In this document: positions 1,866 through 13,780 of the stretch, piece by piece
Numbering within the stretch: the first letter of the stretch is position 1
Layout: every line of letters starts with the position of its first letter
Virus record (IMG/VR): IMGVR_UViG_3300020202_000147
Span: 1 to 40,729 of that record
DNA length: 40,729 nucleotides
Source of the DNA: a virus
Reading direction: 5' to 3' (one strand)
Translations under genes and position numbers: made by a program
Notes under the pieces: generated by a model
The model's database searches: none
Seen by the model: the letters and a program-made list of their open reading frames with translations, nothing else
What the model was told of the DNA's origin: nothing

Positions 1866-2410
1866 CGTCCACCAGCCTTTAGCAACGCCTTTGCTTTGTC
1901 GGCCCACGAACAAACCACGGTGCATCCGGCTTCTATGTCGTGGCCATAGTGTTTTAACTGAGACATGTATTCAACCATTTCCCGCAGCGCCTTGTTCTGG
2001 GCTTCAAGTTGCGCAATCACTTTGTTACGGCCAGTTTCATCCATATAGATCTCGTGGATAGTCCAGCCAATCTTTTGAGCTTCTAACAGGGCGGTCTTGA
2101 GTCGCTCAATCTCCGCGTCCTTCTCCCTCAACTCTTTCTGATACCCAAACATCATTTCGGTATCGCCGTCCAATCGTCTTTGTAGTTCCTTGCTTTCTGC
2201 GTCCTTCTTCTCTAGGAGCGCAGTAAGCCTATTTCTTTTCTCGACGCTCCAACAATACTCACACCATCCGTGCGGTATTCCATACTCATCAACCGTTTCA
2301 GGATACTTTTCCTCTTTTGGAAGTCCGACAAAATGTTCGCAGTCTCCACGGCCCAGCCCTGCAAACCGGCACCAGACACGCTTCGCTTCTTCTCTGCTCG
2401 AGGGATTCAT
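1862..2410 (-). CDS. Cys-containing coiled-coil protein
   Basis: The 182-residue protein has an N-terminal region with Cys and His residues (WCRFAG, DCEHFVG, HGWCEYCW; about residues 13-52), compatible with zinc binding. A long Glu/Lys/Leu-rich coiled coil follows (about 55-150) and then a C-terminal region with two Cys. It starts at ATG 2410, overlapping the upstream stop. Comparable coiled-coil accessory proteins are frequent in early regions of phages. Function unknown. Confidence 0.6.
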   Translation of the reverse strand: MNPSSREEAKRVWCRFAGLGRGDCEHFVGLPKEEKYPETVDEYGIPHGWCEYCWSVEKRNRLTALLEKKDAESKELQRRLDGDTEMMFGYQKELREKDAEIERLKTALLEAQKIGWTIHEIYMDETGRNKVIAQLEAQNKALREMVEYMSQLKHYGHDIEAGCTVVCSWADKAKALLKAGGR

Positions 2411-2559
2411 GGCTTCCTCATCTCAATTACATCTCCTGCTGGCCTTGCTCCGCAACCCGTACACCTCGGAGGTAGGGGCGGTGTTACTCCCATCCATACG
2501 CCTACAAACCCTCTTACATCACCGCCGCATAGCGAACAACTTCCAATTCTTTGTTCCAT
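2407..2559 (-). CDS. Zinc-ribbon microprotein
   Basis: ATG 2559 has a strong GGAGAGAGG ribosome site just upstream, so I reject the longer frame to 2673. The 50-residue product contains CSLCGG near residue 8 and CTGCGARP near residue 35, a two-knuckle zinc ribbon. It ends in an ATGA overlap. It is one of about a dozen small Cys-rich proteins in this phage. The target (nucleic acid or host protein) cannot be deduced. Confidence 0.65.
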   Translation of the reverse strand: MEQRIGSCSLCGGDVRGFVGVWMGVTPPLPPRCTGCGARPAGDVIEMRKP

Positions 2560-2645
2560 ATCCCTCTCTCCTTTTAAACCCACCAGACGCCCCAAGTAGC
2601 CAGCATCTCTGCCGCAACTGAAGATCCTCACGGTCTCTTCGCGTC

Positions 2646-2707
2646 CAGTGGGTAACTTTTTAGTGACCAGCAACGGCTTTACAGCAAATCCCGTTGCGTT
2701 TCTTCAC
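2646..2707. repeat. Dispersed imperfect repeat, copy C
   Basis: On the minus strand this segment carries GTGAAGAAACGCAA and, further on, CCGTTGCTGGTCAC followed by an A-rich run and CCACTG. Nearly the same order and spacing of blocks occurs at 39976-40036, and a shorter version at 3467-3496. The copy spans the 3-prime end of the methyltransferase gene and the non-coding stretch after it. Confidence 0.5.
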
Positions 2708-9654: not shown

Positions 9655-9851
9655 GATGCCTCCTCAATCTCGTCGTCGATGTATTCTTCGAAACAGTCCT
9701 CGAGGTTTGAATGGTCATAATCCCCTGACTTAATCGCTTCAATCGCCTCGTCATAGGCCCGGTTGGTCGCATCGTCACCAGACTCCATGTTCGGGTTGTA
9801 GGTCACGCTTACTTGCTTAATCAGAGACACAAGAACAGTTACTTTTTTCAT
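9651..9851 (-). CDS. Acidic hypothetical protein (66 residues)
   Basis: Starts MKKVTVLVSLIKQVSVTYNP with a beta hairpin, then a strongly acidic helical C-terminus (EDCFEEYIDDEIEEAS). Coupled by ATGA to the RlpA-like gene above and the membrane protein below. No family recognised. DNA mimicry or a protein-inhibitor role would be speculation. Confidence 0.55.
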   Translation of the reverse strand: MKKVTVLVSLIKQVSVTYNPNMESGDDATNRAYDEAIEAIKSGDYDHSNLEDCFEEYIDDEIEEAS

Positions 9852-10297
9852 AAAGTCACCTCGACAGGAATTTCACCGTAAGCAACGCCAGACTTTGTAT
9901 AACCGCGCTTCCCACCGAGAGCATCAAAGGCTGCAGGGGTCAAATCCACAATCACACCGCGCTGCCTCTGCTTCTTGCCTGGCCCCAAGTCGTTGTGCGT
10001 ACAAACGATTGATTTGCCGTTGGAGATGTTCCGCACGCTTACGGATCGCCCGAAGTTCCTCGACCACATTGCGCAGGATATCGAGCTCTCGTTGAACCTC
10101 TCGCCCGATGCAGTCCACAGACCTGAATTTCCTTCCGCCTTCGTACTCTTCGAGTCGTACCATGTCGCTATTCCTTTCACTGTTTCAGCGTATGCCGATT
10201 TCGAAGTCTGGGTCAGCGAAGCTGCCGCAAAAAACAACATCGTAAAGACTACGGTATGGCTCCACCGCTTTTCGTATTTGGATGAACATAGGGTCAC
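9848..10297 (-). CDS. Secreted RlpA-like double-psi beta-barrel protein
   Basis: The C-terminal part matches RlpA: GIATWYDSK, then TASGERFN, FGRSVSVRNISNGKSIVC, THNDLGP (the catalytic-type Asp) and GVIVDLTPAAFDALGG. RlpA proteins cleave naked peptidoglycan glycan strands as lytic transglycosylases. The preceding KYEKRWSHTVVFTMLFF...SAYA segment is a signal peptide with cleavage before ETVKG. I choose GTG 10297 because it gives a normal-length signal. The open frame continues upstream to 10468, with ATG 10405 as an alternative. It is the best candidate in the window for the lysis enzyme, or it may cut the wall during entry. Confidence 0.7.
   Translation of the reverse strand: MTLCSSKYEKRWSHTVVFTMLFFAAASLTQTSKSAYAETVKGIATWYDSKSTKAEGNSGLWTASGERFNESSISCAMWSRNFGRSVSVRNISNGKSIVCTHNDLGPGKKQRQRGVIVDLTPAAFDALGGKRGYTKSGVAYGEIPVEVTL
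9924..10163 (-). CDS. Overlapping coiled-coil ORF inside the RlpA gene
   Basis: An ATG (10163) with AAAGGA 8 nt upstream opens a 79-residue frame wholly inside the RlpA-like gene. The product looks protein-like: EVQRELDILRNVVEELRAIR and a further helix with HLQRQINRLYAQR, a strong heptad coiled coil, ending CDCGFDPCSL. RlpA in the other frame is well conserved, so this would be true dual coding, as in phage spanin and lysis genes. Chance is not excluded. Confidence 0.3.
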   Translation of the reverse strand: MVRLEEYEGGRKFRSVDCIGREVQRELDILRNVVEELRAIRKRAEHLQRQINRLYAQRLGARQEAEAARCDCGFDPCSL

Positions 10298-10400
10298 GGC
10301 TTGCCGCGTATCCAATTTCGGAAAGTCGGATGACTTTCGCCGCAAGACACCGTATGTCGATGTTCTTTTCCTCTTCACAGGTTTTCTCGTTTCTTGGCAT
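10185..10400 (-). CDS. Hypothetical protein overlapping RlpA 5-prime region
   Basis: ATG 10400 opens a 71-residue frame with credible composition (CLAAKVIRLSEIGYAASRDP then AVEPYRSLYDVVFCGS). It fills the region where the RlpA frame is a poor, very basic N-terminal extension. I infer that this gene comes first and RlpA starts within it at GTG 10297, a 113-nt overlap. The assignment of these two frames is uncertain. Confidence 0.4.
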   Translation of the reverse strand: MPRNEKTCEEEKNIDIRCLAAKVIRLSEIGYAASRDPMFIQIRKAVEPYRSLYDVVFCGSFADPDFEIGIR

Positions 10401-10401
10401 T

Positions 10402-10839
10402 TCATTTCAAGACCGCCTTTCTTTTGTGATATGTACTGCAGTTTTCTGTGAACTCCACAAACCTGCAATTCTCGAAAGAGTAGTCTTGATCTGAATTGAT
10501 TCTGTCTACAGTTGGTCGTTTTAATTCAGCGCCATGATCTCTAACCCAAAGCCTCTTGATATCATTCAGGGTTAAATGGCACTTAATCCCTTTACCGAAG
10601 TAATACTCCCAGCTTTTACTGCTCTTAGATGAACACCGCGCTTTTATCCTTCGTAAGACATACTTGAAGTACGTTTCTGTCCCCACCTGCTTGCATGACA
10701 AAAAATACTTTTGGAACGAAGCTTTTAGCTTTTCGGTGTTTTTTGCATACCGCGCTCGCTGCCGCTCGTTAATTTTGTCTTTATGCCGGAGGTATTTCTT
10801 CCGCTGGCGTTCTCGTTCTTTTTCTTTGTCTTTGTACAT
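10402..10839 (-). CDS. HNH-family endonuclease (homing-type)
   Basis: ATG 10839 is preceded by GGGGGAAAG. The 145-residue protein has a very basic N-terminal helix (KEKERERQRKKYLRHKDKI). Its C-terminal domain has RPTVDRINSDQDYSFENCRF, the hallmark of phage HNH proteins in which Asp-Arg-Ile-Asn carries the catalytic region and Asn-Cys-Arg closes the zinc-less HNH fold. Such genes are often free-standing homing endonucleases. It sits immediately after two tandem terminators, at the boundary of the lysogeny and early regions. Confidence 0.75.
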   Translation of the reverse strand: MYKDKEKERERQRKKYLRHKDKINERQRARYAKNTEKLKASFQKYFLSCKQVGTETYFKYVLRRIKARCSSKSSKSWEYYFGKGIKCHLTLNDIKRLWVRDHGAELKRPTVDRINSDQDYSFENCRFVEFTENCSTYHKRKAVLK

Positions 10840-10857
10840 CTTTCCCCCATTGGGCAC

Positions 10858-10899
10858 AAAAAAAGCCCAGTTAGATCAGGGCGTCCTGATTAACTAGGC
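10858..10899 (-). terminator. Rho-independent terminator, strong
   Basis: On the minus strand a GC-containing stem with arms GCC/GGC, AGTTA/TAACT and TCAGG/CCTGA around an ACG-type loop is followed by seven T residues. It ends transcription arriving from the ribbon-helix-helix/attachment region. It is the second of two terminators in tandem. Confidence 0.8.
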
Positions 10900-10908
10900 C
10901 TTAAAAAT

Positions 10909-10943
10909 GAAAAGCCCAAATCAGGTTTGACCCTGTTTGGGCT
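10909..10943 (-). terminator. Rho-independent terminator, upstream of a tandem pair
   Basis: Stem arms AGCCCAAA/TTTGGGCT and CAGG/CCTG enclose a TCAAA-type loop on the minus strand, followed by TTTTC and more T-rich sequence. Together with the next hairpin it forms a tight insulator between the lysogeny module and the HNH/early operon. Confidence 0.75.
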
Positions 10944-10968
10944 GTTAGCTTTGTATCTTTAGGTTATT

Positions 10969-10996
10969 TGGCGGGGGGGAGGATCGAACTCCCGAC
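10969..10996 (-). other. Probable attachment-site core: 3-prime end of a host tRNA gene
   Basis: The minus strand carries a perfect tRNA T-arm (GGGAG-TTCGATC-CTCCC) followed by CCCCGCC, a seven-nucleotide acceptor 3-prime strand, and the discriminator A. No matching 5-prime half (GGCGGGG, D-arm, anticodon arm) lies upstream, so it is not a tRNA gene. A tRNA 3-prime fragment about 700 bp from a tyrosine integrase gene is the usual form of attP for phages that integrate into tRNA genes and restore them. A GGCGGGG acceptor with A73 would fit an elongator tRNA-Met, but the isotype is a guess. Confidence 0.75.
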
Positions 10997-11235
10997 AGAC
11001 ATACTACTACGCCAAATGCACTAAGGATAAAGGGCTAACAGCCCTAGAGGAATAAATAGGGTGCAGACCGCACATGATTAGGCTTTCGACGGCCCGACAG
11101 AAGACAGAGGAACGATCCGCACCCGTGGAGTGGAAAAGGGGTTTGGTTTGTCTTCTGCCATTTGTGTTTCGTCGAAATTTAATCATGTTGTGCATCGAAT
11201 TATATTCCTCTTGTTTCAAATAACAACAACAATTT
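10997..11235. other. Gene-free region beside the attachment core
   Basis: About 240 bp with no convincing gene. It holds a small hairpin (GGGCT-AAC-AGCCC near 11027-11046) and imperfect repeats around the tRNA-like core, as expected for integrase arm-type or core binding sites. A minus-strand frame from 11219 and a 27-codon frame inside it lack ribosome sites and are not called. Confidence 0.5.
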
Positions 11236-11481
11236 TCAACTTTCTAACAATTTCTCTAACACCATCTTGCTATATGCCGCATAAATCAAATGCTCGTCTG
11301 CTGCACACTCCAAACAAAACCGCATGTACTTCGAATATCCTTCTTCATTCTCAAACCGCGCTGTTTTGTAGACGTCACCTATTTCTATAAACTTGCCGCA
11401 GTTTGCGCAATAACCTGTTGACCGCTTACAGCGGTGCTCGGTTATTTGCGGTTTGATTTCTTTTTCTTTCCTTCGCGCCAA
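11236..11481 (-). CDS. Zinc-ribbon protein
   Basis: I choose TTG 11481, with AGGAG 8 nt upstream. The longer GTG-started frame to 11505 has no ribosome site and lies deeper inside the preceding gene. The protein (81 residues) has a basic N-terminus, GYCANCGKFIEIGD, FENEEGYSKYMRFCLECA, and a helical C-terminus. CxxC...CxxC spaced about 30 residues apart is a treble-clef or ribbon zinc site. It overlaps the ribbon-helix-helix gene by 40 nt and is probably co-transcribed from the promoter at 11635-11663. Confidence 0.6.
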   Translation of the reverse strand: MARRKEKEIKPQITEHRCKRSTGYCANCGKFIEIGDVYKTARFENEEGYSKYMRFCLECAADEHLIYAAYSKMVLEKLLES

Positions 11482-11612
11482 GATGAAATCTCCTGCAATT
11501 CCCACCGCATTAAATGAAGGACGTAATCCTTGATGGTAGTATTGCGTTTTACAGCCTCCAACTTTATAGCCTTATGCGTGTCGTCATCTATATCTATCAC
11601 TAATCGCTTCAT
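11442..11612 (-). CDS. Ribbon-helix-helix regulator (Arc/CopG type)
   Basis: The 56-residue protein starts MKRLVIDIDDDTHKAIKLEA followed by VKRNTTIKDYVLHLM. A short N-terminal strand, helix, turn and second helix is the standard ribbon-helix-helix dimer, whose strand inserts into the DNA major groove. ATG 11612 has a GGAGG site. Its promoter carries a perfect inverted repeat over the -10 element, so autorepression is likely. Its location between integrase and attP suggests control of excision or of the downstream zinc-ribbon gene. Confidence 0.75.
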   Translation of the reverse strand: MKRLVIDIDDDTHKAIKLEAVKRNTTIKDYVLHLMRWELQEISSWREGKKKKSNRK

Positions 11613-11692: not shown

Positions 11693-11719
11693 AAAAACCC
11701 CTTATTTTCCAAGGGTTTT
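11693..11719 (-). terminator. Terminator after integrase gene
   Basis: Minus strand AAAACCCTT, loop GGAAAAT, then AAGGGGTTTTT with one mismatch and a T run. It overlaps the integrase stop codon and separates integrase mRNA from the promoter of the RHH gene. Confidence 0.65.
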
Positions 11720-12623
11720 AAGCGTATTCCTGTTTTAGCTTGTCGATTTCTTTCTTGGTGTGCTCGAATGAAAGATGGGTATATTCTGCGGTCTGGTTGA
11801 TGTGGGCGTGCCCTGCCAGTTCCTTTACAACCGCTAAGGGAGCGCCAGCCTCGACCATTTCGGTTACGTAGCCGTGACGTTTTGCGTGCGGAAACGCCCT
11901 GACCCCCACGTCAAGGCCGCGCTCCCTGATCATTTTGTGGACTCTGTTTCCACTAAGCCTAACCCCGTCCTCCCTTGGGAAAAGGGGCATATGTGGTTCT
12001 GCCAACCCCTGCTCTTTTAGGAAGGATAGGTAGATCCTCATATATAAAGCGTTACTTCGAGAGATCGGAATCCACCTAAAACCGTCCCTTTTACCATGCT
12101 TTACGTGTATCCCCCGTCGTCCTGACCTGAAATCGACATCACCTACATTTAATGAAGTCAGTTCGGTCTTCCTTATACCCGAAGCTTCGAAAAGTATCAT
12201 AATTGCTACATCTCGTACGGTCATAAAGGGAGATGCCCAAAGTCTCTGCCAAAGCTCCTTCCTTATAACGGTCGGTTCTTTCTTGGGGCCCTTCCTATAT
12301 TTGAACCCCTCTGCCATCGGATTGTGAGGGATGATCTGCGCCCGGTGTTTCGCCCACCAGTAGAAGTCCTTCATATAGGTAAAGGCTTTGTATGTGGTAT
12401 TCCTGTCCCAAGGTTTCCGAACCCCCTTTTCGGCCGCGCGAAGAATCAGACCATGAATGGTGTTGTACTCCGGTATCCAGAGGATCTCCCCACCATGAAG
12501 CGCGTAGAGCGACTTTAACAGATAGACCTTATTCTCAATCGTCTTCCGCTTCAGGTTCAGATCGTTGGCGAGATAGTGCGCGTACTTTTCTAAAGTGTTT
12601 AGTTGTTCAGGCATGAGCCGCAT
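11718..12623 (-). CDS. int: Tyrosine recombinase (phage integrase)
   Basis: The protein has an N-terminal SAM-like core-binding domain (EKYAHYLANDLNLKRKT) and a catalytic domain with all expected residues: Arg in EASGIRKTEL (about 151), Lys in HVKHGKR, His-x-x-Arg in PHAKRHGYVT (about 246-249), His in ELAGHAH (about 272), and the Tyr nucleophile in TAEYTH (about 281). The frame is open to ATG 12683, but the predicted transcription start is only a few nt before that codon, so I prefer ATG 12623 (MRLMPEQLN). It should join attP near 10.98 kb to the 3-prime end of a host tRNA gene. Confidence 0.92.
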   Translation of the reverse strand: MRLMPEQLNTLEKYAHYLANDLNLKRKTIENKVYLLKSLYALHGGEILWIPEYNTIHGLILRAAEKGVRKPWDRNTTYKAFTYMKDFYWWAKHRAQIIPHNPMAEGFKYRKGPKKEPTVIRKELWQRLWASPFMTVRDVAIMILFEASGIRKTELTSLNVGDVDFRSGRRGIHVKHGKRDGFRWIPISRSNALYMRIYLSFLKEQGLAEPHMPLFPREDGVRLSGNRVHKMIRERGLDVGVRAFPHAKRHGYVTEMVEAGAPLAVVKELAGHAHINQTAEYTHLSFEHTKKEIDKLKQEYA

Positions 12624-12695
12624 ATTAATCCCAGATTTTAATTTTGTGGGGACAAAAATCCGGGTTTTAAAAGCAAGTGTCATGCCTGAATGCGA

Positions 12696-12964: not shown

Positions 12965-13047
12965 ACGAATAATTATCGTGAAAGTTGCTGAAGATAAGAA
13001 CCATCTATCGAGGGCATTTTATTTTACGCGTGTAAATTATTCTTGTG
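12964..13047. promoter_or_regulatory. Upstream control region of the HTH gene with two operator-like sites
   Basis: Three elements are visible: CACGA-N7-TCGTG at 12964-12980 covering the GTG start; TTTAC-GCGT-GTAAA at about 13022-13036; and a related TGTAAATTATTCTTGTG at 13031-13047. The first and last share an AATAATT-like core and CACRA half with the site at 12737-12752. Possible promoters are weak, for example TTAACA with a 19-bp gap to TAAAAT on the minus strand. Confidence 0.45.
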
Positions 13048-13780
13048 TTAACGGAATGAAATCGGCCTGCTCGCCTTCAATCACGATGCCAACCCCGATC
13101 GTCGGTTTGTTCTTTAAAGGCTTCCCGTATCTAAAAGCATAAGCCTCAACATCGATCAAACATCCGACGTTAAGTCCAAAGATCGTGTTATATCCGTTCG
13201 AGTGGTACATCGCCCCACCGAACGAATGCAGATGACCGATGACCGTGTTCATTCTTTTAATACATGCGGCGTTAATTGCCCCTGACTGGCCGCTGAACCC
13301 CTCCCCGTGAAAGTAAAGGACATTATCAATAATCAGCTCATCCTGCCACGTCCAGCCCTTGGGAGCCTCTAAAAACTCGGATGTCTTCCTTATAAAATAA
13401 GAAGGAATGCCGACCTCCTTAGCCATCTTGAAGGGTCTTGAGGTGTGGTTCGAATTACAGACCTGGACTCTAGGGAAAAGGCAGTACAGCTCCTTCAGGA
13501 ACTTAATCGCCGCGCGAATTTCATCCATAGCCCCCATTGCGTCAGGCTCCGGCCGGTGCCTACTTATAATATGGAAGTCAACCTCATCCCCGATGCAGAC
13601 AACTTTAGTGCATTTGAACTTCTTATAGGTATCACTGAGGAAATCAAGGGCGTGTTTATGCTGGAACGGGGCGTGCAGATCCGAAATGACTAATACGGTG
13701 TCCTTGGCAGGTTTTCTGTCAGTCTGCGGTGTGTTCTTTTTTAATTTGTTTGTTGGCGACCAAGGACGCCAGATGTTCAA
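13037..13780 (-). CDS. Calcineurin-like metallophosphatase
   Basis: The 247-residue protein has the metallophosphoesterase motifs in order: ISDLHAP (residues 32-38), CIGDEVDFH (62-70), CNSNHTSR (108-115, in place of the usual GNHD/E), YFHGE and VIGHLHSF. These bind two metal ions and hydrolyse phosphodiesters or phosphomonoesters. It is the last gene of the late module, next to the papain-like gene. Phage members of the family are thought to act on DNA or nucleotides, but the substrate here is unknown. The Gly-to-Ser change in the GNH motif is unusual but leaves the metal ligands. Confidence 0.85.
   Translation of the reverse strand: MNIWRPWSPTNKLKKNTPQTDRKPAKDTVLVISDLHAPFQHKHALDFLSDTYKKFKCTKVVCIGDEVDFHIISRHRPEPDAMGAMDEIRAAIKFLKELYCLFPRVQVCNSNHTSRPFKMAKEVGIPSYFIRKTSEFLEAPKGWTWQDELIIDNVLYFHGEGFSGQSGAINAACIKRMNTVIGHLHSFGGAMYHSNGYNTIFGLNVGCLIDVEAYAFRYGKPLKNKPTIGVGIVIEGEQADFIPLTQE

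What the first reader, a model, noticed from the sequence alone, without database searches (positions are those of the whole stretch)
10969..10996. tRNA 3-prime-end attachment core without a tRNA gene
A perfect T-arm plus seven acceptor bases and discriminator A lie about 700 bp from the integrase stop, with no 5-prime partner. It should be identical to the end of a host tRNA gene (possibly tRNA-Met by the GGCGGGG acceptor), so it can reveal the host.
Basis: partly seen in the sequence, partly recalled or inferred. Interest (0 to 1): 0.7.

Follow-up and report, generated by a model that had tools for sequence, protein, structure and literature searches.

The report
Phage attachment site inside structured RNA
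A bacterial virus keeps the spot it uses to slot into a host tRNA gene in the middle of what looks like a small structured RNA gene of its own, so integration would cut that RNA gene in two and wire the host and virus genes together in a new way.

Summary
The tRNA 3' end is real, single-copy and on the minus strand (10969-10993 exact). The 25-mer is the exact end of tRNA(CAT) genes in Acidobacteriota, Omnitrophota and one Woesebacteria genome, so it is a phage attP core. It narrows the host but does not name it; Omnitrophota fit best. The larger find is around it. The core sits in a ~280-nt unit read in the direction of the integrase gene: sigma-70-like promoter, two interleaved 12-13-bp stems (possible H-type pseudoknot), arm A, tRNA end, arm B (A pairs with B around the core), then terminators. 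Two other phages have the same unit with the same spacings, although one shares only the integrase module (67% identity) and the other only the head genes (integrase 29%). The stems differ in sequence but keep pairing; Rfam has no match. Integration at the core would split the unit: B plus terminators go behind the rebuilt tRNA, while promoter plus stems face the host gene after the tRNA, which in three Omnitrophota is tilS or tilS-like. Anatomy is well supported; transcription, integration and function are inferred. No lysogen was found, and only three phages carry it.

The parts
11718..12683 (-). tyrosine integrase, 321 aa, XerC-like, stop 722 bp from the att core
   Evidence: PF00589 7.5e-23; XerC-type NCBIfam models below their cut-offs
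11199..11226 (-). sigma-70-like promoter TTGTTA-16-TATAAT; predicted start about 11192
   Evidence: only promoter-like site in 10800-11300 (shuffles mean 0.9); same spacer and place in both relatives
11149..11160 (-). stem P, 5' arm
11112..11124 (-). stem S, 5' arm
11095..11106 (-). stem P, 3' arm (order p<s<p'<s', interleaved)
11059..11071 (-). stem S, 3' arm
11034..11044 (-). arm A (GGGCTGTTAGC), pairs with B around the att core
10969..10996 (-). attP core: GTC + T-arm + seven acceptor bases + A73 of a tRNA(CAT) gene
10977..10993 (-). T-arm; its 7-nt loop between two 5-bp inverted arms is a plausible crossover place (inference)
10939..10949 (-). arm B (GCTAACAGCCC)
10913..10943 (-). terminator-like hairpin T1, followed by TTTT; 5' arm overlaps B by 5 nt
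   Evidence: sequence, fold; NOT reported by the consensus scan in the window, reported in both relatives
10857..10899 (-). terminator-like hairpin T2, followed by a T run
   Evidence: fold; not reported by the scan in the window; in rel a T2 is reported, in L116 only part of one
10939..11044 (-). hairpin spanning attP; present only while the phage DNA is not integrated (inference)
   Evidence: DNA fold z -6.3

Best explanation
This is the phage attP, built as a transcription unit that integration splits. Shown by sequence: integrase, then a promoter, two interleaved conserved stems, arm A, the 3' end of a tRNA(CAT) gene, arm B, terminator-like hairpins, all in one direction. Inferred: the XerC-like integrase recombines the tRNA end with the same end of a host tRNA(CAT) gene, most likely in an Omnitrophota bacterium. 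In free phage DNA the unit gives a ~280-nt structured RNA that stops at T1/T2. After integration the unit is cut: B-T1-T2 lie directly behind the rebuilt tRNA and keep its promoter from reading into the adjoining HNH and lytic-transglycosylase-like genes, while the promoter and stems lie at the other junction and read into the host gene behind the tRNA, which in three Omnitrophota is tilS or tilS-like and would otherwise lose its upstream promoter. The A:B hairpin can exist only in the unintegrated form.
For: Exact 25-mer in tRNA(CAT) genes; L116's different core is exact in a tRNA(CAT) gene of 1 of 193 Omnitrophota and 0 of 149 Acidobacteriota. Same layout in three phages: -10 to p 38/39/38 nt, p to s 24/22/22, p' to s' 23/21/21, s' to A 14/14/19, A to T-arm 40/39/34, predicted transcript 280/273/281 nt. 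Interleaved stems: 0 of 500 shuffles for each phage, 0 of 2978 random stretches of the three phages. A:B 11 pairs, all kept in 3 of 3, 4 changed on both sides; with the T-arm 0 of 500 shuffles. Promoter with 16-nt spacer at one place in 3 of 3. Not coding: 72% nucleotide but 35% amino-acid identity, substitutions 20/25/17 by codon position. tilS at +19 in L011 and +40 in L158; tilS-like ORF at +149 in L014.
Against: Three phages only, two sharing the integrase module. No lysogen or junction seen; no expression data. Single-sequence folds of the window contain P but not S, so the two stems may alternate. On the MAFFT alignment 11 of 58 window pairs break in L116, 7 of them in P; those 7 vanish only when I place one inserted base pair by hand. 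The innermost stem is lost in rel. The terminator scan misses T1 and T2 in the window. HP1 attP also has an 11-bp inverted repeat around its tRNA end, so A:B alone is not unique. The target of rel (tRNA-Asp type) was not found exactly in 384 Omnitrophota or 199 Acidobacteriota, so the tilS argument covers two of three phages.
Confidence: 0.5

Rival explanations
1. Ordinary attP: the inverted repeats are binding sites for integrase, excisionase or host factors on duplex DNA; no RNA matters.
For: attP sites carry such arms: P4 has annotated attP arm repeats on both sides of its core. HP1 attP has an 11-bp inverted repeat around its tRNA end.
Against: Pfam finds only the catalytic domain in two integrases and that plus weak core-binding hits in the third, no arm-binding domain. 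P and S differ in sequence between phages, P even between integrases 67% identical, but keep pairing. A promoter sits at a fixed distance in 3 of 3.
Confidence: 0.25
2. Retroregulation of the integrase as at lambda sib: read-through int mRNA carries the att-spanning hairpin, is cut by RNase III and decays; integration separates the hairpin arms and spares int mRNA.
For: Same topology: int, att, long hairpin, same direction, hairpin arms on both sides of the core. Lambda's sib distal to int is described in PMC2951348 (passages); the RNase III step is recalled.
Against: The unit has its own promoter-like site downstream of int; the interleaved stems are not needed for this.
Confidence: 0.15
3. 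Terminator/antiterminator switch: A:B blocks T1 in free phage, T1 forms in the prophage.
For: B overlaps the 5' arm of T1 in all three (5, 3 and 5 nt by the element borders; 10 nt by the longer arms in rel).
Against: T1 and 6-7 bp of A:B coexist in the predicted fold, and a second hairpin T2 follows.
Confidence: 0.05
4. A ~60-aa protein gene overlaps the region (window 11186-11007).
For: An ORF is open over the region in all three (translated by eye); a 65-residue match window-L116 at 35% identity, E 6e-7.
Against: Nucleotides are 72% identical there but residues 35%; substitutions 20/25/17 by codon position.
Confidence: 0.03

Closest known systems
attP sites of tyrosine-integrase phages in tRNA 3' ends (P4, HP1 and many prophages)
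   Same: tRNA 3' end as core, integrase next to it, no full target tRNA in the phage; HP1 also has an inverted repeat around its tRNA end
   Different: No interleaved stems above chance beside the P4 or HP1 core (scores 13-16 against 26-30.5)
Lambda int/sib retroregulation (sib seen in passages of PMC2951348; RNase III mechanism recalled)
   Same: RNA structure downstream of int whose link to int is broken by integration
   Different: Here the hairpin straddles the core itself, and the unit has its own promoter-like site
Integration-dependent immunity of phage BPs (abstract of PMC4557955)
   Same: attP lies inside a gene whose product changes on integration
   Different: There a repressor protein; here the overlapping ORF shows no sign of coding
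tRNA-dependent lysogeny (abstract of PMC10865867)
   Same: attP and host tRNA gene
   Different: There the core is ~10 bp and the phage brings its own tRNA; here the core reaches the tRNA 3' end and there is no tRNA gene in the window
STAXI motif RF01728 (section of PMC2864571)
   Same: Pseudoknot structures near XerDC-type integrases
   Different: Repeated pseudoknots; no Rfam match here
KplE1 intS promoter overlapping attL (passages of PMC2951348)
   Same: Promoter placed at the attachment region of a tRNA-targeting element
   Different: There the promoter drives int; here it points away from int, across attP

Membership tests
tRNA-3'-end attP of a tyrosine integrase | Core identical to the 3' end of a host tRNA gene | tested here: met
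   25-mer in 20 genome stretches, 15 with an ARAGORN tRNA(CAT) at the place; the phage's actual host is not known
tRNA-3'-end attP of a tyrosine integrase | Integrase gene beside the core | tested here: met
   PF00589, stop 722 bp away
tRNA-3'-end attP of a tyrosine integrase | Single core copy in phage DNA, attL/attR in a lysogen | tested here: inconclusive
   single copy; no close prophage in 384 Omnitrophota by capsid or integrase
tRNA-dependent lysogeny | Phage-encoded tRNA of the target isotype | tested here: not met
   no tRNA in the window
Integration-dependent immunity | attP inside the repressor coding sequence | tested here: not met
   the ORF over the region shows no coding constraint
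Lambda sib-type retroregulation | Structured RNA downstream of int, unlinked by integration | tested here: inconclusive
   layout and folds fit; transcription and unlinking are inferred
Lambda sib-type retroregulation | RNase III cleavage and 3' decay of int mRNA | not testable with these tools
   needs RNA work
STAXI or any Rfam family | Covariance-model match | tested here: not met
   none at gathering in the window; only matches far below gathering in the three units
tRNA or tmRNA gene | Complete fold found by ARAGORN | tested here: not met

The most novel reading that the evidence does not exclude
A new class of phage noncoding RNA gene that contains attP and is cut in two by integration, so that the intact ~280-nt pseudoknotted RNA exists only while the phage is unintegrated; the two halves take on new jobs in the lysogen, one as terminator for the rebuilt tRNA, the other as a substitute promoter and leader for the host gene tilS.
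Probability: 0.35. Interest if true: 0.8.

Novelty: new variant of a known kind. Interest (0 to 1): 0.6.

Why it matters
tRNA genes are favoured phage targets, yet how a phage handles a tRNA that is followed closely by a gene such as tilS (essential in many bacteria; recalled) is seldom asked. This layout offers a testable answer: bring a promoter for what lies behind the tRNA and terminators for the tRNA itself. If the RNA acts on its own, it would be an RNA version of integration-dependent control, known so far (in the papers seen here) from a protein. It also links three uncultured-virus genomes to each other, and two of them to a host group through tRNA genes of Omnitrophota.

Tried and rejected
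Antiterminator: I first took the A/B/T1 overlap for a switch; folds show T1 and most of A:B together and a second hairpin follows, so I rate it low. Protein gene across the region: rejected. tRNA or tmRNA remnant: no ARAGORN or Rfam support. Nested rod of the window's own minimum-energy fold: not kept in L116, only P and S are. Full-length R1 match at L011:1385-1482 is an ordinary tRNA with its terminator. More members: viral-contig scans with the core, integrase, TerL, capsid and A/B patterns gave only rel and L116 as carriers; phages and plasmids by DNA: none; model R1 in 45 other virus records: none, with no positive control inside that call. Host by integrase: 331 of 384 Omnitrophota match at 1e-15 but the best rows are only about 27-39% identical, a XerC/D-like background. 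Host by capsid: 3 of 384, weak. Exact target of rel: 0 of 384 and 0 of 199; a 2-mismatch relative in one Omnitrophota of 17 genomes searched is tRNA-Asp. Control phages with distant integrases and P4, HP1, P22 were used; the P22 stretch held neither int nor the att site, so it is no control. Paper searches (listings) showed no description of a structured RNA spanning attP; this is no proof of absence.

Full report
WHAT IS THERE. The minus strand at 10993-10969 carries the last 25 bases of a tRNA: T-arm GGGAG-TTCGATC-CTCCC, acceptor CCCCGCC, A73. No tRNA or tmRNA is found in the window, and the core has one copy. The window is a 40,729-bp virus record, without identical ends in a simple end-word test. 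The integrase (11718-12683, minus) is 722 bp away.

WHICH tRNA, WHICH HOST. The exact 25-mer occurs in 20 stretches of the genome collection. By record title 16 are Acidobacteriota-type (several from the same MAG), 2 Omnitrophica, 1 Woesebacteria and 1 an unassigned bacterium. ARAGORN calls tRNA(CAT) at the match in 15 of 20; two of the others are cut by the contig end and three (L016, L018, L022) have only a tRNA 3' half. In the Acidobacteriota genes the acceptor begins GGCTGGG and CCA is encoded; in the two Omnitrophota genes it begins GGCGGGG, the perfect partner, and one of them (L011) has no encoded CCA, like the phage. L116, a related phage with another core (GGCGG T-stem, TCCCGCC), matches a tRNA(CAT) gene exactly in 1 of 193 Omnitrophota and in 0 of 149 Acidobacteriota. 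Omnitrophota is therefore the best host guess, not a proof. ARAGORN labels CAT as Met; beside tilS it could also be tRNA-Ile2 (recalled knowledge). The core of the third phage, rel, looks like tRNA-Asp, because its closest match among 17 genomes (2 mismatches) is tRNA-Asp in one Omnitrophota genome; it was not found exactly in 384 Omnitrophota or 199 Acidobacteriota.

TWO RELATIVES SHARE THE LAYOUT. rel (IMGVR_UViG_3300021061_000035, 38.8 kb) shares head genes (TerL 70%, capsid 78%) but its integrase is 29% identical. L116 (IMGVR_UViG_3300020202_000118, 43.6 kb) shares the integrase (67%) but its TerL is 37-38% identical over about 205 residues. Downstream of the integrase both have a tRNA 3' end inside an inverted repeat, followed by terminator-like hairpins. 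Among 46 T-arm-like sites in 149 fetched loci (1.2 Mb, with overlapping copies), every site with a flanking perfect stem of 11 bp or more belongs to one of these three attP sites.

THE UNIT. All three have, in order: promoter-like site with 16-nt spacer, stems P and S with interleaved arms (p, s, p', s'), A, tRNA end, B, T1, and a further hairpin. Spacings agree closely: -10 to p 38/39/38; p to s 24/22/22; s to p' 5/3/11; p' to s' 23/21/21; s' to A 14/14/19; A to T-arm 40/39/34; T-arm to B 27/28/32; predicted RNA 280/273/281 nt. An outer stem at the base (AGAGGAATA/TATTCCTCT in the window) also exists in all three, but its 5' arm overlaps the -10 region; I do not rely on it.

TESTS. Interleaved stem pairs as strong as observed: 0 of 500 shuffles for each phage and 0 of 2978 random stretches of the same phages, whose maximum was 23 against 26, 30.5 and 28.5 observed. 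A:B: 11 pairs, all kept in 3 of 3 sequences, 4 changed on both sides; with the T-arm, 7 two-sided pairs, 0 of 500 shuffles, and 0 when slid by 1-3 columns. The T-arm changes follow the host tRNA and say nothing about the phage RNA. Stem pairs named from the window alone: 11 of 58 break in L116, against 22.8 on average and a minimum of 11 in 5000 control mutants (1 of 5000 as low). Of the 11, seven lie in P, where the automatic alignment misplaces one inserted base; by hand P has 0 broken, 1 two-sided, 2 one-sided, 8 same and 1 inserted pair, and S 0 broken, 5 one-sided, 8 same; the other four lie in the A-B hairpin inside the 11-bp A:B stem. L116 folds at -149.7 kcal/mol against -102.6 (sd 5.9) for 100 window mutants with the same substitutions scattered. 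The ORF over the region is not coding by two tests: 72% nucleotide against 35% residue identity, and 20/25/17 substitutions at codon positions 1/2/3 of 58 each. Rfam: nothing at gathering in the window, only matches far below gathering in the three units.

RESULTS AGAINST. The minimum-energy folds of the window contain P but not S; S appears in the two-sequence consensus. P and S may thus form a pseudoknot or take turns. The innermost stem ATTTGGCG/CGCCAAAT is kept in L116 but not in rel. The consensus scan does not report T1 or T2 in the window, though it reports T1 in both relatives and T2 in rel. HP1 attP, one of two classical controls that could be read, has an 11-bp inverted repeat around its tRNA-Leu half (tRNA name recalled); such a length occurs in 1 of 2000 random window positions. 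So a hairpin around a tRNA-end attP is not unique; the interleaved stems are absent from P4 and HP1. No relatives of the unit were found in 45 further virus records, or in phages or plasmids by DNA.

HOW IT MOST LIKELY WORKS. Recombination at the shared tRNA end would leave, at one junction, host tRNA 5' part + phage core + B-T1-T2 + HNH and lytic-transglycosylase-like genes; at the other, integrase + promoter + P/S + A + core + host DNA. In L011 the next host gene starts 19 nt after the tRNA and is tilS; in L158 40 nt after, also tilS (NCBIfam TIGR02432, 3e-47 and 3e-56); in L014 an ORF 149 nt after begins like TilS (by eye). Of the other 12 tRNA genes checked (Acidobacteriota, Woesebacteria), 9 have no ORF of 80 aa or more on that strand within 300 nt (some contigs end first), and 3 have an ORF not tested for family. 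So in these Omnitrophota tRNA and tilS may be one operon (inference); phage terminators behind the tRNA would cut tilS off, and the phage promoter would replace the lost one. Shown: the parts, their order, conservation and host gene order. Inferred: transcription, recombination, rescue of tilS, insulation of phage genes. Not explained by this: why the interleaved stems are conserved; a function of the RNA itself, or int retroregulation as at lambda sib, remains open.

NOVELTY. A tRNA-end attP is well known. A conserved, promoter-led, interleaved-stem unit that contains attP and is split by integration matches none of the systems I compared; paper searches (listings only, plus the abstracts, passages and section named above) showed none. 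I call it a new variant of a known kind, with a more novel reading kept open.

Noticed in passing
2410-2703 (-): Short zinc-ribbon-like ORF, 77-79% identical in both relatives over about 50 residues although their head or integrase modules differ; no PHROG match at 0.01.
   Followed up: partly
11442-11612 (-) and 11236-11505 (-): Between integrase and promoter: a ParD-like ribbon-helix-helix ORF (PF09386, 4.6e-6) and a weak zinc-finger-like ORF; rel has a weak RHH and L116 a zinc-ribbon-like ORF there. Possible excisionase or regulator.
   Followed up: partly
9848-10857 (-): HNH endonuclease and DPBB lytic-transglycosylase-like ORFs directly behind T2.
   Followed up: partly
L016, L018, L022: Contigs (two Blastocatellia, one unassigned bacterium) with tRNA-Met 3' halves starting at the anticodon loop and no 5' half: likely att ends of other elements using the same tRNA.
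   Followed up: no
L156:383-509 (-): HP1 attP: 11-bp inverted repeat TGGTATTTAAA/TTTAAATACCA around its tRNA 3' half.
   Followed up: partly
13037-13780 (-): Metallophosphoesterase-like protein, phrog_221, 1.1e-51.
   Followed up: no
L027:11264-11335: The relative rel carries a tRNA-His(GTG) gene; the window has none.
   Followed up: no
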